Positions 33,761 to 57,600 of a stretch of DNA of 64,000 bases are shown piece after piece (the first letter of the stretch is position 1; the number at the start of each line of letters is the position of its first letter). The stretch is from positions 1-64,000 of the forward strand of contig JAURYL010000035.1 in NCBI GenBank assembly GCA_030653935.1, in the 5' to 3' direction. Source of the stretch: Pseudomonadota bacterium. GTDB taxonomy: Bacteria; Pseudomonadota; Gammaproteobacteria; Burkholderiales; Thiobacillaceae. Under the pieces are notes generated by a model. The model had not been told where the DNA came from and searched no databases. It worked only from the letters and a program-made list of their open reading frames with translations. Both the position numbers and the translations under genes were made by a program.

Positions 33761-34609
33761 ATGAAAATCCCGAAAAGACTCGAACCGTTGCTTGAAGACG
33801 GCCTCATCGACGACGTCATCCGCCAGCTCATGAGCGGCAAGGAGGCGATGGTCTTCGTCGTCAGTTGCGGCGACGAGGTGCGCTGCGCCAAGGTCTACAA
33901 GGAAGCCAACAAGCGCGGCTTTCGCCAGAGCGTCGATTACACGGAAAACCGCAAGGTGAAGAACAGCCGCCAGGCGCGCGCCATGGCGAAAGGCACTCGC
34001 TTCGGGCGGGAAGCCCAGGAAGAAGCCTGGCAAAGCGCCGAGGTCGACGCCCTCTACCGTCTCGCCCGCGCCGGCGTGCGCGTGCCCAAGCCGTACAACT
34101 TCCACGCCGGCGTCCTGCTGATGGAACTGGTCTGCGACGCCTACGGCAACGCTGCGCCTCGCCTGAACGACCTGGAATTCACGCCAGAACAGGCGCGGGC
34201 GCATTTTCAGACCCTGCTACGGCAAGTGGTGTTGATGCTGTGCGCTGGCGTGATCCACGGCGACTTGTCGGAATACAACATCCTGGTCGGCGCCGATGGC
34301 CCGGTGATCATCGACCTGCCGCAAGCGGTGGACGCCGCCGGCAACAACCACGCCCGCGACATGCTGGAACGTGACGTCGGCAACCTGGCGGTCTACTTCG
34401 GGCGCTTCGCGCCGGAACTGCTGGCGACGCGCTACGGCAAGGAAATCTGGGCCTTGTACGAACACGGCGACCTGCATCCCGACACACCGCTCACGGGCCG
34501 TTTCGCGGAGAGTTCCAAACCCGTGGACCTGCACGGCGTAATGCGGGAGATCGACGACGCCCGCGACGAAGAAGCGGCGCGGCAGATGCGTCTGCGCGAG
34601 GCGGAATAA
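33761..34609 (+). CDS. PA4780-type RIO1-like protein kinase
   Basis: GKEAMVFVVSCGDEVRCAKVYKEANKRGF; VIHGDLSEYNILVGADGPVIIDLPQAVD. Confidence 0.88.
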   Translation: MKIPKRLEPLLEDGLIDDVIRQLMSGKEAMVFVVSCGDEVRCAKVYKEANKRGFRQSVDYTENRKVKNSRQARAMAKGTRFGREAQEEAWQSAEVDALYRLARAGVRVPKPYNFHAGVLLMELVCDAYGNAAPRLNDLEFTPEQARAHFQTLLRQVVLMLCAGVIHGDLSEYNILVGADGPVIIDLPQAVDAAGNNHARDMLERDVGNLAVYFGRFAPELLATRYGKEIWALYEHGDLHPDTPLTGRFAESSKPVDLHGVMREIDDARDEEAARQMRLREAE

Positions 34610-38191: not shown

Positions 38192-38248
38192 GAGGTTTCT
38201 CTCTGATCAGCGAGTTGGGGTTGTAAGCCGGAACCGCCGAAATTTCCG

Positions 38249-41200
38249 TCACCCAAGATCAAGCCCCGCCACGAGCGCGTCCAGGTCGATCATCTTGCCA
38301 TCGCTCTGGAAGGTGTAGTGCCCGTTCAGCAGGATGTGCCGCCAGGCCGCAGGCGATATCTGAGTGATGAGCGCGAGTGCCTTGGTGTTGCCGCTCGCCT
38401 CGTACTTCGTCAGCAGCCGTGACAGGATGGCCGAGTTGTAGAAGATGACCGCGTTCGCGATCAACCTGGCGCACTGGTTGCTGATTTCGATCTCGATGTC
38501 GGTGCGCCCGGTCAGCTCCTTCTTGCCGCCAACTTGGGCAATGGCCCCGCGTAGCTGGTGGTAGGACTCAATCCGGTTCTGCGAGCGGTGCACGTTGCGC
38601 TCCAGTTGGGGATCGCGCAGGTAACGCAGCGTGTAGATGCTGCGGATGAGTTTGTCGAACTCGAACACCGCGCGCCGCGTCGGATTCGATGTGGTGTAGG
38701 TGCACAGCTTGCGGATCAGCGTGCCCTGCGTCATCTCCTTCAGCCCGAGTGTGGCCACGATCTGGTCGAGGTTCGGCTTCTCGCTGATGATGGGTTGCCT
38801 ATCGACTTGGCCGACCGGCCGGATCAGGCACTTCTCGTACAGAGCCGGATCGTCGGCGCAATACAGTTCCTGCAACTGTCCTTCCATGCCGGTAAAGCGC
38901 GGCTCGAAGCGCAGGCCGAACCAGTGCAGGATGGCGAAGTTGGCTTTGTTGACACTGTGCATATCGCCGGTGATCGCAGTCGGCACGATGTCCGACGTAT
39001 TGCGATACCAGATGTCGAACACGTGATGGGCCTCGTAGTCGTGCGCACCAATCAAGTAGCCGTTGAGCGGCACATGGTTGCACAACAGCGTGTAGGCGAC
39101 CACGCCCTTGCCGCGCCCGAAATACTTCCGTGAGTAGCGAGCCTTCACGGTCGGCCGCTCGACGCCGAATTTCTGACCATCGACGGCACCGTACAGCACA
39201 TCGAGGTCAAACGAGTAATGCGGGAAGATTGGCAGCGCCGCAATGGCGTTGCTGATGCAGTCGTTGGCCGCGTGCAGCGTTGCGTGGCGCAGGTACTGCT
39301 GGTAGGCGCTTTCCAGCACGTGATACGGGATGTCGCTGGTGCGCGCCATGACCTGGTTGCCGTGGTTCATCGCCTGCGCGATGATGACCGCCATCAAGCT
39401 GTCGGCGTCGGCGACCTTCTTCGCATAGCGCGGCTGCAAGGGTATCAGCGCCGACAGGAACTGGCACTGGGCGTTGACGAAGCGGAACACGTCGGCCACG
39501 TCGCAGAACGGCAATTGCTCGTAGAACACCTTCTCGCGCGCCTTCGGATTGTCGCCCTTGGGCTTGCGCCAGGTCAGCTTCTGCGTGTCCTTGTCGTATT
39601 CCAAGTGCGTCAGCTTGCCCTGCTTTAGCTCGCGATTGAAGGTCAGCCATTGCGTGTGCAGTTCAGCCGCGAGCGCATCGAGCTGGGCATTGATCGGCTG
39701 CCGCAGGAACGGGATGTCCATCTGAGCGAGCACGTCTGCCTTCTCGTCCAGTGAAACCAACTCGTCGGAGAAGTGCCGGTGCTGCAAGCTATCATCGAGA
39801 TACAGCTCGCCCGATTGGAAGCGCTTCCTGACTTGACGGTACAGCCAGAACTCGTAGCGGTCGGCGTGCAGACCGGTCGGCTTGCCATCGGCATCGAAGG
39901 TCAGCAGGTATGGCCGCAAGCGTTTCGGTAACGTGGCCGCTGGACATTCGGCAAGCGGTCGTTGCGACAGGCGCTGCTGCTTGGCGTACACGCCCTTCGT
40001 CCAAGCCAGCGCTGCGAGCCACGGGCTGTCCAGATCTGTGCCGGCGAAATCGAGTGCGACGTACAGCGGCCGTAGATGGCGGCGGATACGCTCGGCCAAG
40101 CCGTCCACCGCCTGCCAGTGCAGCGCCAGCTTGCTCACCGGCTTCACGCTCATACGCTGTGCCGTGGTTTGTAGCGTATCGCGGGGCATGATCCTGTAGG
40201 CGCGCTGGCGCACATCGCCGAACGGCGTGGGATCGGGCACGCTGTCATCGATGTAAAGCGACAGCAGGCGGCCAACCTGCGGCGTATCTTGCTGACGGCG
40301 CACCTGCTCGGCGACGAAGTTCTGCTTCGCGCCCGCGCTGCTTTCGTCCTCCAACTGCTTCATGTGGTAGGCCATCGCGTCGACCAGGTTGTCGGAGAAC
40401 TGCCGGTAGCGCACCCAGGCATAGCACAGCAGATAGAGGTTGGTCTGATCGGCTTTCAGATTGCGCAGGTCGTGGACGGTGTAGAAGTTCGCCAGGCTCG
40501 CGTAGTACAGCAGGTTCTGCTGCGAGACGCCGAGCTTGGGCAGCAGCGCCTTGGCGATGCGATGCAGCGGTTCCAACGTGGCGCGCTTTTCCCGTTCGCG
40601 GGCCATCTGCCGCCAGCCGAAATCTTTGGCGTCTTGCTTGAGCGCCGCCAGTTGCGACAGGGTTTCATCGCGCACCAGGAGTTGACCCAGGGCGGCCTTG
40701 GCCGATTCGTCCAACACGTCCGCTAGCAGGCCACCCAAGCGCCGACGCTCGGCGGACAGCGTTTCGCTGACCACCTCTTGCAGGGTGGTATAGCCGGGCC
40801 GGATGATCTTGTGCTCATTGAGCCAGACGATCAGCTCGGCGGCGATGAACCCCGGCATCACGTCGCGCCGCACGGTCTGCGCGGCATGCTGCGCAAGCTG
40901 CGGCAGGAAATCGGCTGCCCAAGGCTGGTAGTCGAACAACGCGGCAATCCGCTCGCGTTGGGTGTAGTGCTCGTGCTTGGAGATCGCCTTGCGCTTGAAC
41001 GCTTCGCCTTGGAAATACCGGCTCAGTACGAAGGCGCAATCGTCTTCGACCTCGTTCCAGTCGAAGCGGAAGAAGGCGTGCTTGGCCTTGAAGTAACCGA
41101 TCTGCAAGATGCAATAGACCTGGGCATGCAGGCCGGGCCGACTGCTGGCGAGCGCCAGTTCGGTTTCGGTTAAGGCTAGGTAGTCCAGCTGCTGGGCATC

Positions 41201-41278
41201 GTCGAAATCCGGCAGGCCGTACAGGGCTTCCTGCTCGGCGTCCGAAAGAACGGTCAGCCGCTCGCTCTTGGCAATCAT
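38249..41278 (-). CDS. tnpA: Tn3-family transposase
   Basis: 1009 aa; MIAKSERLTVLSDAEQEALYGLPDFDDAQQLDYLALTETE; C-terminal DDE region GDMHSVNKANFAILHWFGLRFEPRF...RNVHRSQNRIESYHQLRGAIAQVGG. Confidence 0.97.
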   Translation of the reverse strand: MIAKSERLTVLSDAEQEALYGLPDFDDAQQLDYLALTETELALASSRPGLHAQVYCILQIGYFKAKHAFFRFDWNEVEDDCAFVLSRYFQGEAFKRKAISKHEHYTQRERIAALFDYQPWAADFLPQLAQHAAQTVRRDVMPGFIAAELIVWLNEHKIIRPGYTTLQEVVSETLSAERRRLGGLLADVLDESAKAALGQLLVRDETLSQLAALKQDAKDFGWRQMAREREKRATLEPLHRIAKALLPKLGVSQQNLLYYASLANFYTVHDLRNLKADQTNLYLLCYAWVRYRQFSDNLVDAMAYHMKQLEDESSAGAKQNFVAEQVRRQQDTPQVGRLLSLYIDDSVPDPTPFGDVRQRAYRIMPRDTLQTTAQRMSVKPVSKLALHWQAVDGLAERIRRHLRPLYVALDFAGTDLDSPWLAALAWTKGVYAKQQRLSQRPLAECPAATLPKRLRPYLLTFDADGKPTGLHADRYEFWLYRQVRKRFQSGELYLDDSLQHRHFSDELVSLDEKADVLAQMDIPFLRQPINAQLDALAAELHTQWLTFNRELKQGKLTHLEYDKDTQKLTWRKPKGDNPKAREKVFYEQLPFCDVADVFRFVNAQCQFLSALIPLQPRYAKKVADADSLMAVIIAQAMNHGNQVMARTSDIPYHVLESAYQQYLRHATLHAANDCISNAIAALPIFPHYSFDLDVLYGAVDGQKFGVERPTVKARYSRKYFGRGKGVVAYTLLCNHVPLNGYLIGAHDYEAHHVFDIWYRNTSDIVPTAITGDMHSVNKANFAILHWFGLRFEPRFTGMEGQLQELYCADDPALYEKCLIRPVGQVDRQPIISEKPNLDQIVATLGLKEMTQGTLIRKLCTYTTSNPTRRAVFEFDKLIRSIYTLRYLRDPQLERNVHRSQNRIESYHQLRGAIAQVGGKKELTGRTDIEIEISNQCARLIANAVIFYNSAILSRLLTKYEASGNTKALALITQISPAAWRHILLNGHYTFQSDGKMIDLDALVAGLDLG

Positions 41279-41868
41279 TGTGACGACACTCCGCTGGAGC
41301 TAGTCCAGCCGACCCGCGCCAGGGTTTCGATCAGCGTAGTTCGTTTGACGTTGAAGTTGCGGCATACCGCTGCCTTGGACATTCCGCCATCGAGCGCGGC
41401 AACGATGGCGTCCAGTTTCTCGCCAACGATGGCAGGTGGTCGGCCGCCGATCCGACCGCGTTTGCGCGCGGCGGTCAGCCCCGCGACGACGCGCTCCTGG
41501 ATCAAGGCGCGCTCATATTGCGCGAGTGCGCCGAACACCTGAAATAGGAACTCGCCCGATGGCGTTGTGGTGTCCAGGTTCTCCGTCAGCGAGCGGAACG
41601 CCACCCGCTTATCCTTGAGCGAGGTCACGATGCCGAGCAGATGCGACAGCGAGCGGCCGAGCCGGTCGAGCTTCCAAACTACCAGCACATCGCCGGGGCG
41701 GACGAATTCGAGGGCCCGAGCCAAGCCTGCGCGGTCATCCTTCGCGCCAGAGGCTCGATCCTCGAACAGGTGCCGAGCATCGACGCCAGCGGCGAGCAGC
41801 GCATCACGTTGCAAGTCCGTGCTTTGGCGATCGGAATCCGACGACACACGCATGTAACCAACCAACAT
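41275..41868 (-). CDS. tnpR: Serine resolvase of the Tn3 element
   Basis: MLVGYMRVSSDSDRQSTDLQRDALLAAGVDARHLFEDRASGAKDDRAGL...VWKLDRLGRSL; ATGA overlap with tnpA. Confidence 0.95.
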   Translation of the reverse strand: MLVGYMRVSSDSDRQSTDLQRDALLAAGVDARHLFEDRASGAKDDRAGLARALEFVRPGDVLVVWKLDRLGRSLSHLLGIVTSLKDKRVAFRSLTENLDTTTPSGEFLFQVFGALAQYERALIQERVVAGLTAARKRGRIGGRPPAIVGEKLDAIVAALDGGMSKAAVCRNFNVKRTTLIETLARVGWTSSSGVSSQ

Positions 41869-41976
41869 AGGCGGATAACCATCAAAAACAGGTTTCCGTA
41901 TGGTAGTGCATGGCGACATGGTTTTCCGCACAATTTTGAGGCCATCTAGCGGGTGGTGCACACGACTGTTGCAGAT

Positions 41977-42004
41977 GTGTCGTAAAACAAGTGTTTTACG
42001 ACAC
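41977..42004. promoter_or_regulatory. Perfect 12-bp-arm palindrome GTGTCGTAAAAC-AAGT-GTTTTACGACAC, probable res subsite or operator
   Basis: Lies between divergent tnpR and the toxin gene; 28 bp. Confidence 0.65.
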
Positions 42005-42059
42005 GTATCTTGAGTCTGTTGCGCTTGCGATGTTACCTGAACAGGTATAAACTGCCATC

Positions 42060-42437
42060 ATGGTCGATAAAGAAAAACCGCTCGAATGGATCGCGAGCAG
42101 CTACAAGGATCTGATGGCGTTGCCGCCCGACGTGCGTCGGCGTTTCGGTTACGCGCTGTCGCTGGCCCAGATGGGCGACCAGGACGACGCGGCGAAGGTG
42201 CTCAAGGGATTCGGCGGGGCCGGCGTGCTGGAGGCCGTCGAAGATGATGTCGGCGGCACGTACCGGGCGGTCTACACGGTGAAGTTTGCGGAAGCGGTGT
42301 TCGTACTGCACTGCTTCCAGAAAAAGAGCAAGAGCGGGATTGCCACGCCAAAGGTGGACATGGACATCATTCGCGCTCGGCTAAAGGTGGCCGAGGCAAT
42401 GGCACAGGAGTTACGAAATGCAAAAACGAATCATTGA
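42060..42437 (+). CDS. RelE/HigB-like (phage Gp49-like) toxin
   Basis: MALPPDVRRRFGYALSLAQMGDQ...YRAVYTVKFAEAVFVLHCFQKKSKSGIATPKVDMDIIRARL. Confidence 0.88.
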   Translation: MVDKEKPLEWIASSYKDLMALPPDVRRRFGYALSLAQMGDQDDAAKVLKGFGGAGVLEAVEDDVGGTYRAVYTVKFAEAVFVLHCFQKKSKSGIATPKVDMDIIRARLKVAEAMAQELRNAKTNH

Positions 42438-42753
42438 AGGCATCGAGGTTCAACGCAGCTCGGGCAATGTCTTTGCCGACCTTGGACTGCCCGATGCTGA
42501 GAAGCTGAAGATCAAGACCGGTCTGGTTGTCGAGATTAGGAAGGCAATACGTGCCTTGGGGATCAACCAACAAGCGGCTGCGAAACGCATGGGCATTCCG
42601 CAGCCGAAGGTGTCGGGCATGATGCGTGGTGACTTCACCAACCTGTCCGAACGCAAACTGATGGACTGCCTGAATCGCCTTGGCTACGACATCGAAATCA
42701 AGGTGCGACCGGCCGCCGAGCCGGTCGGGCACCTGACTCTTGCAACCGCTTGA
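42418..42753 (+). CDS. XRE-family HigA-like antitoxin
   Basis: HTH: NQQAAAKRMGIPQPKVSGMMRGDFTNLSERKLMDCLNRLGYDIEIKV; overlaps the toxin gene. Confidence 0.9.
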   Translation: MQKRIIEGIEVQRSSGNVFADLGLPDAEKLKIKTGLVVEIRKAIRALGINQQAAAKRMGIPQPKVSGMMRGDFTNLSERKLMDCLNRLGYDIEIKVRPAAEPVGHLTLATA

Positions 42754-42798
42754 CCAGAGATAACCTGAATGCTTTGGGAGACAGCTACGTCATGAGCC

Positions 42799-42945
42799 GT
42801 GCTGACCAACGACACGGGACGGCCTGCCTTCGATGCTTTGCTAGTCTTCTCGACCTGGTATCCGATTGGCGTGATGCTGCTGGTCTTTGCGTCGTGGCCC
42901 CTTGGTCGGATGCTTCGCTCCAGAGCACAGGAGCGGCGGAAATGA
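42799..42945 (+). CDS. Predicted 48-aa single-TM peptide in Tn3 passenger region
   Basis: GTG start; VLTNDTGRPAFDALLVFSTWYPIGVMLLVFASWPLGRMLRSRAQERRK; ATGA overlap with next ORF; not in the supplied ORF track. Confidence 0.4.
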   Translation: MLTNDTGRPAFDALLVFSTWYPIGVMLLVFASWPLGRMLRSRAQERRK

Positions 42946-43298
42946 GCACATCCAGTATCGAGGCGCTGGCCAGCGCGTGGGCGCGGGTAGTTGAGGAAGC
43001 GGAATTCCCAGCCGACTACGAAGGTACAGCTTCACCAGACGCACATTCGGCCAGTGAGGCAATCCAGGAGCAGATTCGGGGGCATATCGTTACCACCAAC
43101 GATATGCGGCTGTTCGGCCTGTTGCACCTGCTGGGGCAGGCTTCGCTGCGCATGGAGCAGGCGCTGTGGCCGGAGGATTATGAGCGGATGACCCGCGAGG
43201 TCGAGGAAGCCCTGCGGGAAGCCGATGCCCCCAATGCCGGCTCGTATAGTCACGAGGAAGTCATGCAGGCGACGCAGGTACGCATCGACCAAGCGTGA
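42942..43298 (+). CDS. Hypothetical Tn3 passenger protein
   Basis: MSTSSIEALASAWARVVEEAEFPADYEG...; ends about 20 bp before the terminal inverted repeat. Confidence 0.5.
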   Translation: MSTSSIEALASAWARVVEEAEFPADYEGTASPDAHSASEAIQEQIRGHIVTTNDMRLFGLLHLLGQASLRMEQALWPEDYERMTREVEEALREADAPNAGSYSHEEVMQATQVRIDQA

Positions 43299-43353
43299 GA
43301 TAAGCCACGTTGATTGGCTGACGGAAATTTCGGCGGTTCCGGCTTACACCCCC

Positions 43354-43861: not shown

Positions 43862-44240
43862 ACCGATAGGGGTAGAGAAGAGCGTGAGCCCTCCCCTCCC
43901 TCCGAACCGTGCGTGCAGTTTTCCCGCACATGGCTCTCCAGTGGGTGGTTTCAACATCGTGATTGGCTCGCCGTGGCATGGGCTCCATACAAGGTAAAGC
44001 GCTCCTGCTCAGCGAAGAAAGCATTCGGCCAGCGAACATGATCAGTGTGACAGAGCTCGCAGGCGACGGCGGATGAAGCCGTCCAGTCGGTGGGTGTGCT
44101 TGAAGTAGCCAAACCAGCCTTTCAGCATCGGATTGATCTCCCCAAGTAATGCTGCTGAGGCTCGTCCCGCACGTGCGGCCGATCTTGCTCCGCAGTTTGC
44201 CCTTCAGGGCTTTCAGGCTCTTCTTGCGCACCCAGCGCTT
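43862..44240 (-). pseudogene. Decayed group II intron 3' portion: frameshifted maturase C-terminus plus domains V/VI
   Basis: KRWVRKKSLKALKGKLRSKIGRTCGTSLSSI / EINPMLKGWFGYFKHTHRLDGFIRRRLRAL / HTDHVRWPNAFFAEQERFTLYGAHATASQSRC* in shifted frames, followed by the domain V-like hairpin. Confidence 0.8.
43904..43936 (-). ncRNA. Group II intron domain V
   Basis: GAGCCATGTGCGGGAAAACTGCACGCACGGTTC folds as the conserved DV hairpin, just after the maturase stop. Confidence 0.8.
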
Positions 44241-44594: not shown

Positions 44595-45368
44595 TTGTTC
44601 AAGATCATCATTTGTATTGCTGGTTATTATTTTTTCGGATTCACCGGGGCACTCTTCGGCCTGGTGATTGGGTCGGTGATTGATCGCCTGCGGGCCTATG
44701 GGGCCGGCGGCATCAATCCGCTGCAGAACGCGCTGCGTCAAACCGTTTTCCTCGAGACGATGTTCATTTCGATGGGCAAGCTCGCCAAAGCGGATGGGCG
44801 CGTTTCACCGGAAGAAATTGCCCATACCGAGGATTTGATGCAGAAGTTGGGTATGACCGCTCAGCATCGCGCCCAGGCGATCGAGCTGTTCAAGCGCGGC
44901 GCTACCCCTGCGTTTGATATCAAACCGACCTACACGCGCTTCATGTCGGTGTGCGGTCAGACGAAGCAACTGAAGCAGGTATTGCTGGTTTATCTGATCA
45001 CGATGGCGCTGGCGGACGGCCAAGTGCATCCGGTGGAAGAGGCGCTGCTCGCCGATATCGCGGACCAGCTCGGCTATACCCCGGCCGGCTTCAGGCAGTT
45101 GATGGACATGGTGTTGAATCAGTCCCACTTTGTGGGGGGGCAACCCAGCACGGCGACCTCACTGGAAGATGCCTACAAAGCGCTGGGGGTCACAAAAGAT
45201 CATACCGACCAGGAAATCAAGCGCGCCTACCGCAAGCTGATCAGCCAGTACCACCCGGACAAGTTGATCGGTCAGGGCTTGCCGGCGGACATGATCGCCA
45301 TGGCAACGGAAAAGGCCAAGGAGATTCAAAACGCCCACGACGTGATCAAGCAGGCCCGGAATATTTAG
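44595..45368 (+). CDS. djlA: DjlA-like co-chaperone (TM, TerB, J-domain)
   Basis: N-terminal TM; FISMGKLAKADGRVSPEEIAHTEDLM; J-domain DAYKALGVTKDHTDQEIKRAYRKLISQYHPDKL; TTG start. Confidence 0.88.
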   Translation: MFKIIICIAGYYFFGFTGALFGLVIGSVIDRLRAYGAGGINPLQNALRQTVFLETMFISMGKLAKADGRVSPEEIAHTEDLMQKLGMTAQHRAQAIELFKRGATPAFDIKPTYTRFMSVCGQTKQLKQVLLVYLITMALADGQVHPVEEALLADIADQLGYTPAGFRQLMDMVLNQSHFVGGQPSTATSLEDAYKALGVTKDHTDQEIKRAYRKLISQYHPDKLIGQGLPADMIAMATEKAKEIQNAHDVIKQARNI

Positions 45369-45614: not shown

Positions 45615-48600
45615 ATGCAAAGAACCGGAGGCAAACTCACCGCGTCAGCTTCAGACTTGGTTGGGTTTCTCGCATGTCCGCACAAGACAACCCTCGATCT
45701 GGTCAACCTGGACACGCCTCTCGAACGTGCCGCTCCCGACGAGCAGGTGGAGTTGATTCAGGACAAGGGGTTCGCCCACGAGTCGGCTTACCTTGAAACG
45801 CTACGCGAGGGGGGTGGGCGGCTGGTCGAACTTTCAAGCGCCGGCAGCTTCGCCGAAAACGTTGCCGCGACGCGCGCTGCCATGGCCGCTGGGGTCGACA
45901 TCATTTTCCAGGCGGCGCTCTCTCATGGTGCCTTCATGGGCTATGCGGATTTCCTGCGCCGGGTCGAGAGGCCGTCGGCTTTGGGCGCCTGGAGCTACGA
46001 AGTGGCCGACACCAAGCTCGCCCACCAAGCCAAGCCGAAGTTCATGATCCAACTGGCCCATTACTCCGAACTTCTGGCCTCGGATCAAGGCATCTACCCG
46101 GAAAGAATGCACCTTGTATTCGGCAATCACACCGAGCGCAGTTTCCGCGTGGGCGACTACCGGCACTATTACCGGCGCCTACGGCAACGCTTTGACGCAT
46201 TCCTCGACAAACTGCCAGCGACCGCGCCCGAGAAGTGCGATGCCTGCGACTATTGCGACTGGCGCGAACGTTGTGCCGCCGAGTGGGAAGCGCAGGATCA
46301 CCTGAATCGTGTCGCCAATATCAGCAAGATGCAGATCAAGCGCCTGCGCCAACAAGGCGTCCATACGCTCGCCCAATTGGGGAGCTTGGCGTCGAATGCG
46401 ACGGTGACGGGTATGCGGCCCGAGACCCTGGCGAAGCTCAGGGCTCAGGCCGGCTTGCAGTACAAGAAGCGTGAAACCGGCGAGAACCAGCTCGAACTTC
46501 TGCCGCGCGATGCATCTGCCAGAACTGGCTTTGATCGCCTGCCGCCACCGGACGATGGCGATCTCTTTTTCGACATGGAGGGCGACCCGCTGCATGAGGG
46601 CGGCCTCGAATATCTTTTCGGCGTCCATGTTCGCGAGAAAGGCGCCTGGGTATTCCACGACTTCTGGGCTCATGACCGCCGACAGGAAAAGGCGGCGTTC
46701 GCGCAATTCGTCGACTTCGCCACCCAGCGGCTGCGGGAGCATCCCCACGCTCACATCCATCACTACGCCCATTACGAGCCAACCGCGCTCAAGCGATTGA
46801 TGTCGCTGCACGGCATCCGTGAGGCCGAGATCGACCAGCTACTCCGGGACGGAAAATTCGTCGACTTGTACCAGATCGTGCGCGAAGCCATCCGCATTTC
46901 GGAGCCGCGCTACTCGATCAAAAACCTTGAAACCTTCTATATGGCCAAGCGTGATGGCGAGGTCACCAATGCCGGTTCCAGCATCGTTTATTACGAAAAG
47001 TGGCGTCAGACGAGGGACGACGATCTCCTGCGCAAGATTCGCGACTACAACGAGGACGACTGCCGGTCGACTTACTTGTTGCACGACTGGCTGCTCGGCC
47101 TCAAGCCCCAGGCGACCACCTGGGCGGATCGCGTCGCGGCGCCGGACAACAAGAGCGTGAAGAGCGACAAGATTCGGGAGCACGAGGCTCGTCTCGCGGC
47201 CTACGAGGAGCGCCTTCTCCTGGGCGTCCCGGAAGACTCCGCGACGCGTGACGGCGAACAGAAACTACGGGCGTTGATGGCGCATCTACTCGATTTCCAC
47301 CGCCGTGCCGCCAAACCTGCCTGGTGGGCGCTGTTTGCCCGCCACGACATGGACGAGGAGGAACTTGCGGACGACGCCGAATGTATCGCCGGCCTGCGGC
47401 TCGTTTCCGTTACCCAGGTGGGACAGGGCAAAAGCGCGGGTGTGGCGACCTATTCCTACCCGGAGCAGGAATTCAAACTCCGGCAAGGGGATGCCTGCTT
47501 GCGTACCGACACGACGCAGAACTTCGGCAAGCTGGGCGCCATCGATGAAGACCAACGCTTATTGGAGATTCGCCTCAGCAAGAAGAAGGGGGAAGACCTG
47601 GAGATTCCCACGGCGATTTCCATTTCGGCCGGTGGCCCGATAGACACGACGCCAATCAAGGAAGCCCTGTTCCGTCTGGCTGACGGCCTGCTGGAGGATA
47701 AGGGCCGCTTTGCCGCCGCCCTCGATTTCCTGCGCAAGGCTCCTCCGCGCATACGCGGCCATGAACCGGGCCAGCCCATCATTGACGAGTCGCGGGAGGC
47801 CCTGCCTCAGATTGTTGAGGCGGTAGTCAATCTTGATCACAGCACCCTGTTTATCCAGGGGCCGCCGGGCGCCGGGAAAACCTACACCGGCTCCCACCTC
47901 ATCGCCGAATTGATCGCTCGCGGCTACCGCGTCGGCATCACGTCGAATAGCCACAAGGCGATACACAATCTTCTGGCGGGAGTCGAGAAACGTGCGGACG
48001 AACGCGGACAGAACTTTGCAGGCATATACAAAGCATCCTCCGTGGCTCCAGATTCGGAGTTTAAGAGCAGACGGATAGCTTCAGTGCGCAGCAACGACCT
48101 GGTGTTTCTGAACATGGGTAATCCCCACGTTCAACTCTTCGCCGGGACTGCCTGGCTGTTTAGTGCCGCAGCGTTTGCCGACCAACTCGATTACCTCTTC
48201 GTGGACGAGGCCGGCCAGGTTGCCACCGCCAATCTGGTGGCCATGGCCACCAGCGCCAGGAATATCGTCCTCCTCGGCGACCAGATGCAGTTGGGGCAGC
48301 CGATCCAGGGCATCCATCCCGGCGAGTCGGGCCTCTCGGCACTGGACTTCCTGCTGGAAGGCCGCGCCACGATTCCACCCGACCAGGGCGTGTTTCTCGC
48401 CACCACCTGGCGCATGCATCCGGACGTGTGCCGCTTCATCTCCGATGCCGTGTACGAAGGCCGCCTCTACCCGGAACCCAAGAACGCGGAACAGCGCCTG
48501 ATCCTGAAACCGGACGCCCACCCGTTGCTGCGCCCCACCGGCCTGGTCTTCGTACCGGCGATTCACGACGCCTGCGCCCAACGTAGCGAGGAAGAAGCCA

Positions 48601-49013
48601 GGATCGTCCTGGCTCTCTATCAAAGCTTGCTGGCACAAAGCTACCGCGACCGGGATGGACGGGAGCATCCCATGACACCAGAGAACATTCTGGTCGTCGC
48701 GCCCTACAACATGCAGGTCAACCTGCTGCGTCGAACCCTGCCAGAAGACGCGCGCGTCGGCACGGTGGACAAATTCCAGGGCCAAGAAGCCGAAGCGGTG
48801 ATCGTCTCCATGACCACGTCCAACGGCGACACCCTGCCGCGTTATATCGAGTTTCTCTACAGCAAGAATCGACTCAACGTCGCCCTTTCCCGTGCGCGCT
48901 GTCTGGCGCTATTGGTAGCGAGTCCGGCGCTGGCGGATATTCCGTGCGCGACGGTGGAGCAGATGGGGTTGGTGAATTTGATGTGCAGAGTGATGAAAGT
49001 TGAAGCTACATAA
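45615..49013 (+). CDS. TM0106-type RecB-like nuclease fused to SF1 (Dna2/Upf1-like) helicase
   Basis: GYADFLRR...YEVADTKLA nuclease-like motifs; CDACDYCDWRERC; FIQGPPGAGKTYTGSHL Walker A; LFVDEAGQ; GTVDKFQGQEAEAVIVSM; NVALSRAR. Confidence 0.88.
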   Translation: MQRTGGKLTASASDLVGFLACPHKTTLDLVNLDTPLERAAPDEQVELIQDKGFAHESAYLETLREGGGRLVELSSAGSFAENVAATRAAMAAGVDIIFQAALSHGAFMGYADFLRRVERPSALGAWSYEVADTKLAHQAKPKFMIQLAHYSELLASDQGIYPERMHLVFGNHTERSFRVGDYRHYYRRLRQRFDAFLDKLPATAPEKCDACDYCDWRERCAAEWEAQDHLNRVANISKMQIKRLRQQGVHTLAQLGSLASNATVTGMRPETLAKLRAQAGLQYKKRETGENQLELLPRDASARTGFDRLPPPDDGDLFFDMEGDPLHEGGLEYLFGVHVREKGAWVFHDFWAHDRRQEKAAFAQFVDFATQRLREHPHAHIHHYAHYEPTALKRLMSLHGIREAEIDQLLRDGKFVDLYQIVREAIRISEPRYSIKNLETFYMAKRDGEVTNAGSSIVYYEKWRQTRDDDLLRKIRDYNEDDCRSTYLLHDWLLGLKPQATTWADRVAAPDNKSVKSDKIREHEARLAAYEERLLLGVPEDSATRDGEQKLRALMAHLLDFHRRAAKPAWWALFARHDMDEEELADDAECIAGLRLVSVTQVGQGKSAGVATYSYPEQEFKLRQGDACLRTDTTQNFGKLGAIDEDQRLLEIRLSKKKGEDLEIPTAISISAGGPIDTTPIKEALFRLADGLLEDKGRFAAALDFLRKAPPRIRGHEPGQPIIDESREALPQIVEAVVNLDHSTLFIQGPPGAGKTYTGSHLIAELIARGYRVGITSNSHKAIHNLLAGVEKRADERGQNFAGIYKASSVAPDSEFKSRRIASVRSNDLVFLNMGNPHVQLFAGTAWLFSAAAFADQLDYLFVDEAGQVATANLVAMATSARNIVLLGDQMQLGQPIQGIHPGESGLSALDFLLEGRATIPPDQGVFLATTWRMHPDVCRFISDAVYEGRLYPEPKNAEQRLILKPDAHPLLRPTGLVFVPAIHDACAQRSEEEARIVLALYQSLLAQSYRDRDGREHPMTPENILVVAPYNMQVNLLRRTLPEDARVGTVDKFQGQEAEAVIVSMTTSNGDTLPRYIEFLYSKNRLNVALSRARCLALLVASPALADIPCATVEQMGLVNLMCRVMKVEAT

Positions 49014-49015
49014 CC

Positions 49016-49936
49016 ATGGGAAAGGAAGAAAATATGACTGTAAAAATGGATACGGACTTCTTGTACGAGATTGAGATTGATGATGGAAACGGCATGAATC
49101 TTTTTCCCTGCCGTGACAAGCATGGAAAATTCTCAGTCAACCTCGATGGCCGCAGCAAGGGGAAAGGTCGATATATATCTGCTTCTTTCGAGGAGTTGCT
49201 GCAGTATTTCGCTGATGGCAACTTCCAAGAAAAGGGGTCAATAAGAATGAAAGCACCGGGAGAAAAAGGAAATGGCAATGGTCGTTCACCTATCAATCCT
49301 CGCACCCCTGCCAAAGCATTCATTAGTGATAATTTTAAAAGACTGGTTTCGGAAAGAGCAAATAGGAAGGTCCTTTCTTCTGTATTGCGTGCAGAGTCTG
49401 AGAAATCCGTCAGTGGGTTGGATATTACGAAAAACTTTTCATCGGCAGTTCTTGATGACAAGGCAGGACATCCTGCGATGACTATTGATGCTCAGGGTTC
49501 GCTTGAGTCGGACACCCGAAACCTGAAGACGGACGAGCGAGAGGCGGTGGTGAAAATCCGTTTCGGACAAGGGAATTTCCGGGATGCTTTGTTCAACGAG
49601 AAGGGTCACGGAGCTAAATGTTGGATGTCCGGCATCGAGGGCCGGCAACTGCTCATCGCCTCGCATATCAAACCGTGGTCGCACTGCAAGGATGAATCGG
49701 AGTCTCGTGGCAGACGTGACAACGGGCTTCTGTTATCAGCGCTGTGGGATGCCGCCTTTGACGCGGGGCTCGTCAGTTTCGAATCGAACTGGAAAGTAAT
49801 TGCATCCTCAAAGCTCGCCGAATCCGCTCGAACCGCCATGAACCTGAAAGAACACTCGGAGCTTCCAGAAAAATTCCGAACGGAGGGGCGAAAGTCATAT
49901 TTAGCGTACCACCTCGTCAATGTGTTTCAGGACTGA
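49016..49936 (+). CDS. HNH endonuclease (HNH_2-like) with uncharacterised N-terminal domain
   Basis: FRDALFNEKGHGAKCWMSGIEGRQLLIASHIKPWSHCKDESESRGRRDNGLLLSALWDAAFDAGLVSF. Confidence 0.78.
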   Translation: MGKEENMTVKMDTDFLYEIEIDDGNGMNLFPCRDKHGKFSVNLDGRSKGKGRYISASFEELLQYFADGNFQEKGSIRMKAPGEKGNGNGRSPINPRTPAKAFISDNFKRLVSERANRKVLSSVLRAESEKSVSGLDITKNFSSAVLDDKAGHPAMTIDAQGSLESDTRNLKTDEREAVVKIRFGQGNFRDALFNEKGHGAKCWMSGIEGRQLLIASHIKPWSHCKDESESRGRRDNGLLLSALWDAAFDAGLVSFESNWKVIASSKLAESARTAMNLKEHSELPEKFRTEGRKSYLAYHLVNVFQD

Positions 49937-49981
49937 TGTTTGAAGGAATGCCATGCATCAACTAGAAATTATTGGGCGGAT

Positions 49982-50626
49982 ATGGAAATGATCATCTGGG
50001 GCAACAAAAAACTGTTCAGCCAAAACGAGAAGGCGGTGCGCCAGATCATGGGACACCCGCTACTGGCGGGGACAAAGCTAATTGGTCGTGGTGCCTATTC
50101 GCTGATTTTTCGGGGCGCGGATACTGTGTTCAAACTCACCGCCGACCGGGTCGCTTATGAGTTGGCGGAGTGCCAGTTGCAATGGCAATGTGCCAGCCTA
50201 CCGGTGGTCAAAGGCCTACACGGCCAAGTTGGGGCTACGGATGGCGGAATCCCGCTCTTTCTCATGGAGATTGAGCACCTGGAAAAGTTGACGGTGGGCA
50301 CCGAGGAGCGAAGTCTATGCCTGTCCATTGGGCGGCGGATTCAGCAAAACAGTGGCCGATGCGAAACAGCTACGCGGCAATTACGGGAAGCAGCCTCATT
50401 CCTTCCCAATGGAGACGTTCGGGAGGCACTGGAGCTTCTTGCGGATTTCGCTGAGGCTCGGCCTGATCGTGCCCTGCTCGATATGCACGGATCGAACTTC
50501 ATGCAACGGCCCTCTACTGGTGAGATCGTCTTGTCCGACCCCTTCCTGGATGCGGAGGTGCGTTGGATGGCGCAGAAGAAATTCCTTTTGGAGAGAGGGC
50601 TCCCCGAGACAACCGGATTTTGGTGA
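49982..50626 (+). CDS. Protein kinase-fold-like protein
   Basis: LIGRGAYSLIFRGADTVFKLTADR (glycine-loop/Lys-like) and LLDMHGSNFMQRPSTGEIVLSDPFLD (catalytic-loop/DFG-like). Confidence 0.5.
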   Translation: MEMIIWGNKKLFSQNEKAVRQIMGHPLLAGTKLIGRGAYSLIFRGADTVFKLTADRVAYELAECQLQWQCASLPVVKGLHGQVGATDGGIPLFLMEIEHLEKLTVGTEERSLCLSIGRRIQQNSGRCETATRQLREAASFLPNGDVREALELLADFAEARPDRALLDMHGSNFMQRPSTGEIVLSDPFLDAEVRWMAQKKFLLERGLPETTGFW

Positions 50627-51620: not shown

Positions 51621-54600
51621 TTGGGATCGGCGTGGAAAGCGGGCAAAACGAAGCTCATCCGCCATTGGCGGCGGATCAAGTACCAGGGCGGCTGCGGCGC
51701 GCCGGGTAAGGACTGCAACGAGGCGCCGCCCCTGCGGGCGGAGTTGTTCAGCAGCGACCAGATGGCCCAGCACGGCATTCGTCTCGCGTCCGCCCACAGC
51801 CTGGCGGTGCGTCGGACGTCAGACCAGTTGCTGGCGCGGCTTGCGGCCAATGAAGCGGTACTGATCGAGACCTGCGACCAGTTGACGGCCGCGGTGACGG
51901 CGAAGCGCCGCATCACGCCGGCCGGGGAATGGCTGCTCGACAACTTCTATCTAGTCGAAGAGCAGATTCGCACCGCCCGGCGCCATTTGCCCAAAGACTA
52001 CAGCCAGGAATTGCCCAGCCTCGCCGGGGGCGGATCGAGCGGGCTGCCACGGGTCTACGACATCGCCCTCGAAACCATCGCCCATGGCGACGGCCGGGTG
52101 GACCCGGACAGCCTCAGCCGCTTCGTCGCGGCCTACCAGACGGTCAGCCCGCTACGCCTGGGCGAGTTGTGGGCCATTCCGATCATGCTGCGCCTGGCCC
52201 TGATCGAGAACCTGCGCCGGGTCGCGGTTCGCATCGCCGGTGGCTGGGTGGAACGGGGTCTGGCGCAGGACTGGGCGGAAAAGCTGAGTGAAGTCGCCCG
52301 CCAGGACCCGAAGAACCTGATCCTGGTCATCGCCGATCTGGCCCGCTCGCAGCCGCCCATGACCCCGCCGTTCGTCTCGGAACTGGCACGCCGCCTGCAG
52401 GGGCAAGGCCCCACCCTGGCCCTGCCGCTGACCTGGATCGAACAGCAACTGGCCGCATCGGCCTCCAGCATTGAACAGTCGGTGCGGGTTGGCAACCAGC
52501 ACCAGGCCGCCGACCAGGTTTCCATCAGCAACAGCATCGGCAGCCTGCGCTTCCTCGGCACCATGGACTGGCGCGAGTTCGTCGAATCCATGAGTCTGGT
52601 GGAACAGACCCTGCGCGGCGATCCGGTCAGCGCCTACGCCGGCATGGATTTCGCTAGCCGCGACCGCTATCGCCATGTTGTGGAACAAGTGGCAAAGGCG
52701 AGCGTTTTCACCGAGGAGGTAGTGGCCGCCCGCGCCATTGAACTGGCGCAGGCAGGGTCTGCCCTCAACGGCAGCGGTGACCGGACCGCCCATGTCGGCT
52801 ACTACCTGATCGACCGTGGCCGTACCGAACTGGAACAAACCCTGCACGCCCACCCTCCCCTGTCCGCGCGGCTGCGGCGTGGCGCCGGGCACTCGCCGCT
52901 GCCGTTGTATCTCGGCGCGATCACCTTGTTCACCGTGCTGCTGGCGGCCGGTTTCCTCGCCGAAGCGCGCGACGCGGGCATCGCGGATTGGGTGTGGTTG
53001 CCCCTGGGCCTGCTCGCCCTGGTTGCCAGCGGCCAACTCGCGTCTGCCCTGGTGAACTGGTTGACCACCCTGTTGGCGTCGCCGCATTCCCTGCCGCGCA
53101 TGGATTTCTCCAGCGGCATTCCGGCCGAGTTCAGCACCCTGGTGGTGGTACCCACCCTGCTCACCAGTCCACGCAACATCGACAGCCTGGCCGAGGCGCT
53201 GGAAGTCCGTTTCCTCGCCAATCGCGACGCCAATCTGTTTTTCGCCCTGTTGACCGATCTGCGCGATGCCGACGCGGAAACCTTGCCCGAGGATGCAGCG
53301 CTGCTGGATATGGCGCGGGCGCGCATCGAAGCCCTGAACGCGCGCTATGGCAAGGACGGGCACGACGTTTTCTTCCTGCTGCATCGTCCGCGCCTGTGGA
53401 ACCCCCATGACCGGCTGTGGATGGGTTACGAGCGCAAGCGCGGCAAGCTGGCGGATCTCAACGCCCTGCTCCACCAGGGCACACGCGACGGCTTCTCGCT
53501 GCTGGTGGGCGATACAGCGCTGTTGGCCGGGGTGAAGTACGTCATCACCCTGGACACCGACACCCAGTTGCCACGCGATGCCGCGCGCGAATTTGTCGGC
53601 GCCATGGCGCACCCGCTCAACCGCCCGCTCTATGACGCCGTCCTGGGCCGGGTAGTCGCCGGCTACGGCATCCTGCAACCGCGGGTGAGCGTGAGCCTGC
53701 CCGGCGCCAGCCTGTCGCGCTATGCCCGTCTGAACGGCGGCGAACCGGGCATCGACCCGTACACCCGTGCCGTCTCCGACGTCTACCAGGACGCCTTCGG
53801 GGAAGGTTCCTTCATCGGCAAGGGTATCTACGAAGTGGCCGTGTTCGAGCAGGCGCTGCAGGGGCGCTTCCGCGAGAACCGCATCCTCAGCCACGACTTG
53901 CTGGAAGGCTGCTACGTGCGCGCCGGGTTGTTGAGCGATGTGCAGTTGTACGAGGAATACCCGGCCCGCTATGGCGCCGACGTGAACCGCCGCTATCGCT
54001 GGATTCGCGGCGACTGGCAACTGATCGGCTGGCTGCTGCCCTGGCTGCGCGGCCCCGACGGGCGCCGGCGCGGAAACCCCTTGTCCTGGCTGGCGCGCTA
54101 TAAGTTGTTCGACAACCTGCGCCGCAGCCTGGTGCCGGCGGCCCTGACCCTGCTTCTGCTGCTGGGCTGGGCTGTGTTTTCCGCTCCATTGCTGTGGACC
54201 CTGGCGGTGCTCGGCGTGCTGCTGATTCCGCCGTTGCTGGCCAGCCTGCACGATCTGTTGCGCAAACCCGACGAGATGCGTATCAGCCAGCATCTCGCCG
54301 CCTGTGCCCACGCCACCGGCCAGCGCGGCATCCAGGCGACCCTCGCTCTGGTGACCCTGCCGCATGAGGCGAGTTACAGCCTGGATGCGATCCTGCGCAC
54401 GCTCTGGCGCCTGGCGATTTCGCGCCAGCGACTGCTGGAATGGAACCCTTCCGGCGACCAGGAACTGGCCAGTCGCGGCGATCTGGCCGCCGCCTTCCGC
54501 ACCATGGGATTCGCCCCGCTGCTGGCCGCCGTCACCACGCTCTACCTGGTGGCGACCAGCCCAGCCGTCTTGCCGATAGCCGCCCCCATTCTGCTGCTGT

Positions 54601-57600
54601 GGCTGGCTTCGCCCGCCATCGCCTGGTGGATCAGCCGGCCCCTGGCCCGACGCGAGGCCAGCCTCAGCGCCGAGCAGACCCGTTACCTCGGCCGCATCGC
54701 GCGCAAGACCTGGGCCTTCTTCGAGACCTTCGTCGGCCCGGATGACCACTGGTTGCCCCCGGACAACTATCAGGAATACCGCATCGGCGCCGTGGCGCAC
54801 CGCACCTCCCCCACCAACATGGGGCTGGCGTTGCTGGCCAACCTGTCCGCCCACGATTTCGGCTACCTGACCGCCGCGCAACTGATCGAGCGCAGCGGCC
54901 ACACCCTGGACACCATGGCGGGCCTGGTTCGCCACCGCGGCCACTTCTACAACTGGTACGACACCCAGACGCTGGCGCCGCTGCACCCGGCCTACGTTTC
55001 GACGGTGGACAGCGGCAATCTGGCGGGCCACCTCCTGACCTTGCGCCCTGGCCTGAACGCGCTGTGCGACCAGCCTATCCTGGCGCCACGCTGGCTGGAT
55101 GGCCTGGGCGATACCCTGGGAATTCTGGAGGAAAGCGCGGGCGCCCCCGTGCCCGCCCCGCTGACGCAATTCCGCCAGCAATTCGATGCGGCGAACGCGC
55201 TCAGGCCCACCACCCTCTCAGCGACCTGGCGTCTGCTCGAACAGTTGAGCCACGCCGCCGAGGCCATGCGCGAGCATCTGGAGCAGGAACCCGAGAGTCA
55301 GGCGTGCTGGTGGCTACGGGCGCTGGCGCAGCAATGCCGGGTGACCAGGGACGAACTGGTCGTTCTCACGCCCTGGCTCGAATTGCCGCCGCCCCCGGAT
55401 GGCTTGGTTCCGCCGCTCGAACTCGACGCCATCCCGACCCTGCGCGCCCTGGCCGGGCTGGCGTCAGTGCCGCTGACCGGGAGCCCCGGCGACACGCCGG
55501 CTCAGGTGGCATGGCTGGCCGAACTCGGTCGCCATATCGAACTGGGCAGCGAGCACGCCCGAGCGCGCATCGCCGCCCTCCAGCAGCTCGCCCTGCGCGC
55601 CGGTGAACTGGCGGTGATGGAATACGGCTTCCTCTACGACAAGGCCGCCCGCCTGCTGGCCATCGGCTACAACGTGGACGAGCGGCGGCGCGACGCCAGC
55701 AACTACGACCTCCTCGCCTCGGATGCGCGCCTGACCGTGTTCGTCGCCATCGCCCAGGGCCAGTTGCCGCAGGAGAGCTGGTTCGCCCTCGGGCGCCTGC
55801 TCACCAGCAGTGGCGGCGAGCCAATCCTGTTGTCCTGGAGCGGCTCCATGTTCGAGTATCTGATGCCGCAACTGGTGATGCCCAACTACGACCACACCCT
55901 GCTCGATCAGACCATGCGGGCGGCGGTGGCACGGCAGATCGAATACGGCCAGCAGTGCGGCCTGCCCTGGGGTATGTCGGAATCCGGCTACAACGCGGTG
56001 GACGTGCAACTCAACTACCAGTACCGCGCCTTCGGCGTGCCCGGCCTGGGACTGAAGCGTGGTCTCGCCGAGGATCTGGTCGTCGCCCCGTATGCCACGG
56101 TGATGGCCTTGATGGTGGCGCCGGAGGCGGCCTGCGCCAACCTGCAGCGGCTCTCGACTGCCGGTGCTGAAGGCTGGTTCGGTTTTTACGAGGCCATCGA
56201 CTACACCCCGGCGCGGCAGCGGCGCGGTGAAAACCATGCCCTGGTGCGCTCTCACATGGCCCATCACCAGGGCATGAGCCTGCTGGCCCTGGCCTGGCTG
56301 TTGCTGGACCGGCCGATGCAGAAACGCTTCGCCGCCGATCCGCTGTTGCAGGCCACCCTGTTATTGCTGCAGGAACGCATCCCCCGCGCCGCGGCGTTCT
56401 ATAACCATGGCGTCGAATTGAGCGGCGGCATGGCCGCTGTCGGCGGCCCGGAAATGCCGATCAGGGTGCTGACCCATCCCGATTCCGCGACGCCGGAAGT
56501 GCAGTTGCTCTCCAACGGCCGCTATCACGTCATGATCAGCCACGCCGGCGGCGGCTACAGCCGCTGGAGCGATCTGGCCGTGACCCGCTGGCGCGAGGAC
56601 GGCACCCGCGATGCCTGGGGCACCTTCGCCTACCTGCGCGACGTGGAAAGCGGCACCACCTGGTCCACCGCGCACCAGCCCACCCGGCACCCGGCGGCAC
56701 ACTACGAGGCGATCTTCTCGGAAGGTCGGGCGGAGTTCCGCCGCCGCGACCACGGTGAACAGTTCGATTTCGACACCCACACCGACATCGTCGTGTCCCC
56801 GGAAGATGACATCGAATTACGCCGGGTGAGCATTACCAACCGTTCCGCCACGCGCCGCACTATCGAGCTCACCAGCTACACGGAAGTGGTGCTGGCTCCG
56901 GCCGCCGCCGATACCCTGCATCCCGCGTTCAGCAACCTGTTCGTGCAGACCGAGATCGTCGCCCCGCGCCAGGCTCTGCTCTGCTCCCGCCGCCCCCGCT
57001 CCCATGACGAGGCGACACCCTGGATGTTCCATCTGCTGGCGGTGCACGACACGGACCCGGGCGAGATTTCCTACGAGACCGACCGCGCCCGCTTCCTCGG
57101 CCGCGGTCGCGATGTTTCCGCGCCCCAGGCGCTGGACCCGGACGGCGAACTGTCCGGCAGTGCCGGCTCGGTGCTGGACCCCGTGTTCGCCATCCGCTGC
57201 CGCATCACCCTGGAACCGGAGCAATCCGCCAGCATCGACCTGGTCTACGGCATCGGCGACAGCCGTTCCACAGCCCTGGCCCTGGTGGAGAAATATCAGG
57301 ACCGGCGCCTGGCCGACCGGGTCTTCGAACTGGCCTGGACCCATGCCCAGGTGGTGCTGCGCCAGATCAACGCCAGCGAGGCGGATGCCCAGCTTTATGG
57401 CCGCCTCGCCAACTCGATCATTTATGCCCATGCAAGCCTGCGTGCCGACAGCAGCACGCTGTTGCGCAACCGGCGCGGTCAGTCCGGGCTGTGGGGCTAT
57501 GCCATCTCGGGCGACCTGCCCATCGTGCTGCTGCGCATCACCGATCTGGTCAATATCGAACTGGTGCGCCAGCTCATCCAGGCCCATGCCTACTGGCGTC

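What the first reader, a model, noticed from the sequence alone, without database searches (positions are those of the whole stretch)
45615..50626. Three-gene cassette: TM0106 RecB-nuclease/SF1 helicase, HNH endonuclease, kinase-fold protein
Seen: three same-strand ORFs with gaps of a few bp (49013/49016) to about 45 bp (49936/49982), immediately past a transposon/intron graveyard; the HNH and kinase genes look AT-richer than their surroundings. Established: TM0106-type RecB nucleases fused to UvrD/Dna2-like helicases, HNH_2 nucleases and kinase-like proteins all occur in bacterial defence systems. Inference: the cassette is a mobile, possibly undescribed nucleic-acid-targeting defence module.
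Basis: partly seen in the sequence, partly recalled or inferred. Interest (0 to 1): 0.72.

Follow-up and report, generated by a model that had tools for sequence, protein, structure and literature searches.

The report
Helicase-nuclease with swappable restriction partner
A betaproteobacterium carries, in a row, a large DNA-unwinding and DNA-chewing enzyme, a DNA-cutting enzyme related to ones that attack modified phage DNA, and a phage-type kinase; relatives of the first enzyme sit on mobile DNA beside other defence enzymes, so this is probably a mix-and-match anti-phage locus, although this exact trio was seen nowhere else.

Summary
Observation confirmed: three same-strand genes lie at 45615-49013, 49016-49936 and 49982-50626. 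Gene 1 (HelNuc) is a TM0106-family protein: PD-(D/E)XK nuclease with a 4-Cys cluster, DEDD exonuclease and Dna2/UPF1-type SF1 helicase, all catalytic residues intact. It is not housekeeping: about 2% of sampled genomes carry it, often on plasmids, next to WYL regulators, ubiquitin-like modules and HEPN/SIR2 genes. In six loci from alpha- and betaproteobacteria or mobile contigs its neighbour is the type IV restriction pair McrB-McrC. Gene 2 carries the HNH nuclease domain of the modification-dependent enzyme VcaM4I, behind an N-terminal domain without detectable relatives. Gene 3 is a T7 gp0.7-like kinase with K-D-N-D intact; its family is rare and mainly phage-borne. The exact trio was found nowhere else. 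In Sulfuricella sp. T08, however, HelNuc and this kinase (49%) flank McrBC, so the middle 'restriction' slot is swapped. Best reading: a modular type-IV-like restriction locus in which HNH (or McrBC) cuts and HelNuc degrades the cut DNA. The kinase's role is a guess. The genes differ in GC3 (0.74/0.52/0.64), so the trio was assembled piecemeal; mobility as one unit is not shown. New variant of a known kind; nothing tested experimentally.

The parts
45615..49013 (+). HelNuc: TM0106-family protein, 1132 aa; PD-(D/E)XK nuclease (E56, D112, D132, K134, Q146, Y150), Cys cluster C21/C211/C214/C220, DEDD exonuclease domain (D320, E322, H383, D482), SF1 helicase (GPPGAGKT 749-756, DEAG 864-867, R933, Q1055, R1093)
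   Evidence: Dna2, UPF1 and SMUBP-2 are the nearest solved helicases
49016..49936 (+). HNH endonuclease, 306 aa; nuclease domain aa 159-305 with H217, N236, D245, D249 matching VcaM4I H224, N241, D250, D254; aa 1-155 of unknown family (candidate target-sensing domain)
   Evidence: N-terminal part without match
49982..50626 (+). kinase-fold protein, 214 aa, T7 gp0.7-like; IGRGAYS 34-40, K51, D167-x-H-x-x-N172, D186-P
   Evidence: start set by homologues L027, L061
45369..45614 (.). intergenic region upstream of HelNuc, presumed promoter; no forward sigma-70-like site found

Best explanation
The locus is a modular, type-IV-like restriction/defence unit built around HelNuc. The HNH enzyme recognises foreign (probably modified) DNA through its N-terminal domain and cuts it. 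HelNuc loads on the exposed end or single strand, unwinds it with the SF1 motor and degrades it with its RecB-like and DEDD nucleases, much as AddAB or Dna2 process ends, so that the cut cannot be repaired. In relatives McrBC takes the cutter's place. The T7-kinase-like protein is a captured phage-type kinase that most likely switches the enzymes, or a host target, by phosphorylation. Shown here: domains, intact catalytic residues, sporadic and plasmid-borne distribution, defence-rich neighbourhoods, repeated HelNuc-McrBC operons, one swap of HNH for McrBC with the kinase kept. Inferred: defence activity, DNA as target, modification dependence, cooperation of the three proteins, any role for the kinase.
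For: Sporadic HelNuc with a second, 54% identical copy in the same genome. HelNuc-McrB-McrC in the same orientation in Sulfuricella T08 (L027), G027 (L028), Croceicoccus plasmid (L083, 4-bp overlap), R. leguminosarum Ta6 (L133, 0-bp gap; WYL divergent), a mobile contig (L145), and McrC in register in NZ_CP022666. WYL regulator divergent and adjacent in L048, L084, L085, L086, L133, L134. ThiF/DUF6527/multiubiquitin genes adjacent in L028, L049, L085, L134 and R. etli 8C-3. HNH domain homologous to VcaM4I, E=4.6e-16, all four active-site residues kept. 2-bp gap HelNuc-HNH. Kinase beside HelNuc in 2 of 4 close kinase loci, the window included.
Against: The exact trio is unique in all collections searched. 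HNH adjacency is seen elsewhere only at a distance and on the opposite strand (Roseomonas plasmid). The HNH N-terminal domain has no recognisable EVE, SRA or other sensor. GC3 differs between the three genes. The kinase family is mainly phage-borne, near another phage gene family, in L061, L135 and L136, and could be a passenger. No function for HelNuc was found in PADLOC or in the papers searched. No forward sigma-70-like promoter before the operon.
Confidence: 0.45

Rival explanations
1. Accretion: HelNuc is a self-sufficient mobile defence or DNA-processing gene, and HNH and the kinase are unrelated genes that landed behind it in an accessory region.
For: HelNuc neighbours vary widely and some loci have no obvious partner; the three genes have different GC3; the exact trio is unique; the tree does not place the window HelNuc with the kinase-linked Sulfuricella copy; HNH-family genes occur alone in many restriction contexts.
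Against: 2-bp and 45-bp gaps on one strand; kinase-HelNuc link repeated in Sulfuricella T08; the slot behind HelNuc holds a type IV restriction enzyme in several lineages.
Confidence: 0.35
2. HelNuc and HNH form the functional pair, and the kinase is a phage-derived relic without a role in it.
For: Nearest wider relatives of the kinase are in viral contigs and Acinetobacter phage-like plasmids near one conserved phage gene family; most HelNuc-McrBC loci have no such kinase.
Against: Kinase is the last gene of the cluster in both window and Sulfuricella T08, with HNH or McrBC in the middle; catalytic residues are intact.
Confidence: 0.35
3. RNA-directed system analogous to type II/III CoCoNuTs or Mokosh, which combine a UPF1-like SF1 helicase, a nuclease and (CoCoNuT) a kinase.
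For: Same activities; UPF1-like helicase; CoCoNuT types II/III pair such a helicase with McrBC and a TerY-P kinase (PMC11090510).
Against: HelNuc lacks the reported OB/RTL/coiled-coil parts as far as profiles show and has DNA-type RecB and DEDD nucleases; HNH is a DNA endonuclease family; MkoA matches cover the helicase part only.
Confidence: 0.1
4. Conserved housekeeping repair gene beside djlA.
For: DNA2/AddB-like architecture fits repair; djlA is the upstream neighbour.
Against: About 2% of sampled genomes; djlA in 3/23 genus genomes and not linked to HelNuc elsewhere.
Confidence: 0.02

Closest known systems
HelNuc-McrB-McrC operons (Sulfuricella sp. T08, Rhizobium leguminosarum Ta6, Croceicoccus marinus; found here)
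   Same: Same HelNuc family at the head of the cluster; in T08 also the same kinase family at its end
   Different: McrBC (GTPase plus McrC nuclease) in place of the HNH enzyme
VcaM4I (EVE-HNH modification-dependent restriction enzyme, PDB 6yex, PMC7897488)
   Same: Homologous C-terminal HNH domain with H, N, D, D kept; domain order sensor-HNH plausible
   Different: The window protein has no detectable EVE domain; its N-terminal domain has no known relative; no helicase-nuclease partner is reported for VcaM4I in the passages read
CoCoNuT type II/III systems (PMC11090510)
   Same: UPF1-like SF1 helicase, restriction nuclease and kinase in one locus
   Different: No McrBC in the window; HelNuc has RecB and DEDD nucleases; the kinase is T7 gp0.7-like, not a TerY-P serine/threonine kinase
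Mokosh type I (MkoA/MkoB)
   Same: SF1 helicase of the same broad clade, combined with a nuclease
   Different: Only the helicase part of the MkoA profile matches; no PLD nuclease
T7 gp0.7 protein kinase
   Same: Catalytic loop DMH-x-x-N-x-M and DP motif align, E=9.3e-5
   Different: Bacterial locus; about 214 aa against 359 aa in T7; alignment limited to 51 columns

Membership tests
TM0106 RecB-like family (TIGR03491) | Profile score above curated cut-off over the whole domain | tested here: met
   345.8 against 97.45 bits, positions 3-462 of 462
TM0106 RecB-like family (TIGR03491) | Intact PD-(D/E)XK and DEDD residues conserved with homologues | tested here: met
   E56, D112, D132, K134, Q146, Y150 in 30/31 rows (one row lacks the region); D320, E322, D482 in 31/31
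Modification-dependent HNH restriction enzymes (VcaM4I type) | HNH domain homologous, with catalytic H, N, D, D | tested here: met
   E=4.6e-16, residues aligned
Modification-dependent HNH restriction enzymes (VcaM4I type) | N-terminal EVE (PUA-superfamily) modification sensor | tested here: not met
   No EVE or other sensor in Pfam for aa 1-155
Modification-dependent HNH restriction enzymes (VcaM4I type) | Cleavage depends on 5mC/5hmC | not testable with these tools
   needs an assay
McrBC type IV restriction | McrB GTPase and McrC nuclease present | tested here: not met
   absent from the window cluster; present in relatives (PF10117 5.5e-76 and 3.6e-78)
CoCoNuT type II/III | CnuB/CnuC (McrBC) with UPF1-like CnuH | tested here: not met
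   helicase of the right clade, but no McrBC in the window
Mokosh | MkoA full-length architecture and PLD nuclease | tested here: not met
   MkoA match on helicase part 928-1108 only; no PLD found
T7 gp0.7-like kinases | Kinase catalytic K, D, N and D residues and profile match | tested here: met
   phrog_15752 8.5e-5, hhalign E 9.3e-5, K51/D167/N172/D186; AF2 model too poor to confirm the fold
Conserved three-gene cassette | Same three genes adjacent in unrelated genomes | tested here: not met
   and plasmid/viral searches

The most novel reading that the evidence does not exclude
HelNuc is the constant core of an undescribed family of modular immune operons whose second component is interchangeable (HNH, McrBC, ubiquitin-like conjugation module and others), with HelNuc as the shared degradation motor, and in one branch a phage T7-type kinase has been domesticated as its switch.
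Probability: 0.25. Interest if true: 0.75.

Novelty: new variant of a known kind. Interest (0 to 1): 0.5.

Why it matters
TM0106-family helicase-nucleases are annotated on many plasmids and chromosomes without a function. The repeated HelNuc-McrBC and HelNuc-ubiquitin-module operons, and the swap of McrBC for an HNH enzyme with the kinase kept, give a concrete hypothesis: a general helicase-nuclease that finishes off DNA cut by type IV restriction enzymes. It also suggests that a phage-type kinase family has been captured by a bacterial defence locus. Both are directly testable in laboratory E. coli.

Tried and rejected
Housekeeping reading: rejected by distribution. Passenger of the Tn3 transposon: rejected, its 40-bp inverted repeats (38217-38256, 43314-43353) end before the cluster. 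Homology between the HNH N-terminal domain and the 116-aa ORF of Sulfuricella: suspected by eye, not significant. AF2 models of the kinase and HNH: pLDDT 39 and 37, discarded and not searched for folds. Wider kinase hits in other genomes of the order (about 30% identity, non-defence contexts) are distant relatives and say nothing about this locus. Viral-contig searches with single window proteins found nothing. An insertion site by comparison with close relatives was not obtained: the flanking djlA and DUF5619 genes are both patchy in the genus. Literature: the term TM0106 gave no biological paper in the library, weak evidence since many journals are missing.

Full report
Observation. The three ORFs exist at the stated places. 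HelNuc is 45615-49013, HNH 49016-49936 (2-bp gap), the kinase 49982-50626 (45-bp gap; the ATG at 49982 is the start shared with the homologues). HelNuc belongs to the TM0106 family well above the curated cut-off and carries a RecB-type nuclease, an RNase_H_2 (DEDD) domain and an AAA_11/AAA_12 SF1 helicase. Its helicase is nearest to SMUBP-2, DNA2 and UPF1 among solved structures. In 31 HelNuc homologues every catalytic position is kept: the RecB residues in 30/31, the DEDD residues in 31/31, Walker and arginine-finger residues in 28-30/31. C211, C214 and C220 are cysteine in 24/31 each and C21 in 23/31, fitting a Cas4/AddB-like Fe-S cluster (the cluster itself is inferred).

Gene 2. HNH_2 is at the C-terminus. 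The only solved relative is 6yex, E=4.6e-16 over aa 159-305, which from my own knowledge is VcaM4I. VcaM4I is a modification-dependent EVE-HNH enzyme whose active site is H224, N241, D250, D254 (PMC7897488); H217, N236, D245 and D249 occupy these places here. The N-terminal 155 aa match nothing in plasmids at E<=1 and no Pfam family. I therefore call the nuclease domain VcaM4I-like, not the protein a member of the EVE-HNH family.

Gene 3. Pfam gives nothing convincing, but phrog_3809 (6.1e-20) and the T7 kinase family phrog_15752 (8.5e-5) match, and hhalign places T7 gp0.7 on its catalytic segment (E=9.3e-5, DMHGSNFM / SDP). K51, D167, N172 and D186 are present. Close relatives are very rare: a pattern scan of 84,980 species genomes gave three others. 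These are Sulfuricella sp. T08 (beside HelNuc and McrBC), a Nitrosomonadales MAG contig (beside an ASCH-domain gene, no HelNuc on its 4.7 kb) and a truncated orphan in Sulfuricella nzgw577. Wider relatives are in viral contigs and Acinetobacter phage-like plasmids; in two of these viral loci, L135 and L136, a homologue of the MAG's ASCH-neighbour gene lies close by. The family is thus phage-type, and the MAG copy is probably prophage (inference).

Distribution. HelNuc at E<=1e-100 is in 7 of 399 genomes of the order and 9 of 369 of the class, the own genome included in both, and 59 plasmid records hold it over at least 80% of its length. The own genome has a second copy on contig C122, 54% identical. 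djlA next door is in 3 of 23 genus genomes and in G002 sits beside ureG. So neither is a housekeeping pair.

Neighbourhoods. HelNuc is followed on the same strand by McrB and McrC in Sulfuricella T08, G027, Croceicoccus marinus plasmid (4-bp overlap with McrB; HelNuc there is broken by an IS5), R. leguminosarum Ta6 (0-bp gap) and a mobile contig L145; McrC lies in register downstream in NZ_CP022666. A looser case is a DUF2357 protein upstream in Caballeronia. On a HelNuc tree the McrBC-linked rows L027/L028 and L083 fall in distant clades (L133, L145 and NZ_CP022666 are not in the tree), so the association is either old or repeatedly gained. ThiF/multiubiquitin/DUF6527 modules are adjacent in Phenylobacterium, three Rhizobium plasmids and (without multiubiquitin) G027. 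A WYL regulator is divergent and adjacent in six plasmid loci; WYL/BrxR-type regulators are known to sit at defence islands (PMC9122601). HEPN, SIR2, Abi, zeta-toxin and restriction genes recur. The plasmid sample was taken from the best matches and is not a controlled enrichment test.

The swap. In Sulfuricella T08 the order is HelNuc - 116 aa - McrB - McrC - kinase; in the window it is HelNuc - HNH - kinase. Kinase identity is 49%, HelNuc 54%. With HelNuc in about 2% of genomes and a 10-kb neighbourhood in about 4 Mb, chance adjacency in one of three other kinase loci is of the order of 1e-4 (rough estimate, ignoring island clustering, which raises it). The link is therefore suggestive, from one independent case.

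Mobility. A complete Tn3 unit (tnpA, resolvase, a toxin-antitoxin-like gene pair, 40-bp inverted repeats 38217-38256 / 43314-43353) ends 2.2 kb before HelNuc. No repeat or recombinase was found to enclose the three genes. GC3 of HelNuc, HNH and kinase is 0.74, 0.52 and 0.64, so HNH is the newest-looking arrival (inference). The region is accessory; the trio as a mobile unit is not shown.

Mechanism. Cutting by HNH and resection by HelNuc is the simplest account that uses all intact active sites and the repeated type IV partners; Hachiman-like damage sensing by the helicase (PMC12278908, abstract) is an alternative order of events. The kinase may regulate; it may also be a passenger. Which of these holds needs the bench tests listed.

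Noticed in passing
38217-43353: Complete Tn3-family transposon: TnpA (38249-41278, minus), resolvase (41275-41961, minus), RelE/HigA-like toxin-antitoxin pair by eye (42060-42753), 40-bp terminal inverted repeats 95% complementary; a GGDEF gene fragment follows its right end.
   Followed up: partly
43866-43938: Group II intron domain match (Rfam Intron_gpII) on the minus strand, a remnant next to the Tn3 unit.
   Followed up: no
44595-45368: Intact DjlA with TTG start (TerB + DnaJ domains), present in only 3 of 23 genomes of the genus.
   Followed up: partly
L029 9484-12909 (G000 contig C122): Second HelNuc in the same genome, 54% identical, followed by genes that by eye look like RelE/GNAT/VapC toxin-antitoxin modules.
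   Followed up: partly
L061 2859-4549, L135 5887-8354, L136 5992-9035: In phage-type loci the T7-like kinase lies close to another gene family (fused to an ASCH domain in L061); a candidate phage host-takeover pair.
   Followed up: partly
L028 1525-10708 (G027): ThiF - DUF6527 - HelNuc - McrB - McrC on one strand: ubiquitin-like and type IV restriction parts around one HelNuc.
   Followed up: partly
33761-34609: RIO1-type kinase gene, unrelated to the kinase of the cluster.
   Followed up: no
51621-60344: 2907-aa ORF; by eye it resembles a cyclic beta-glucan synthase (NdvB type), not tested.
   Followed up: no
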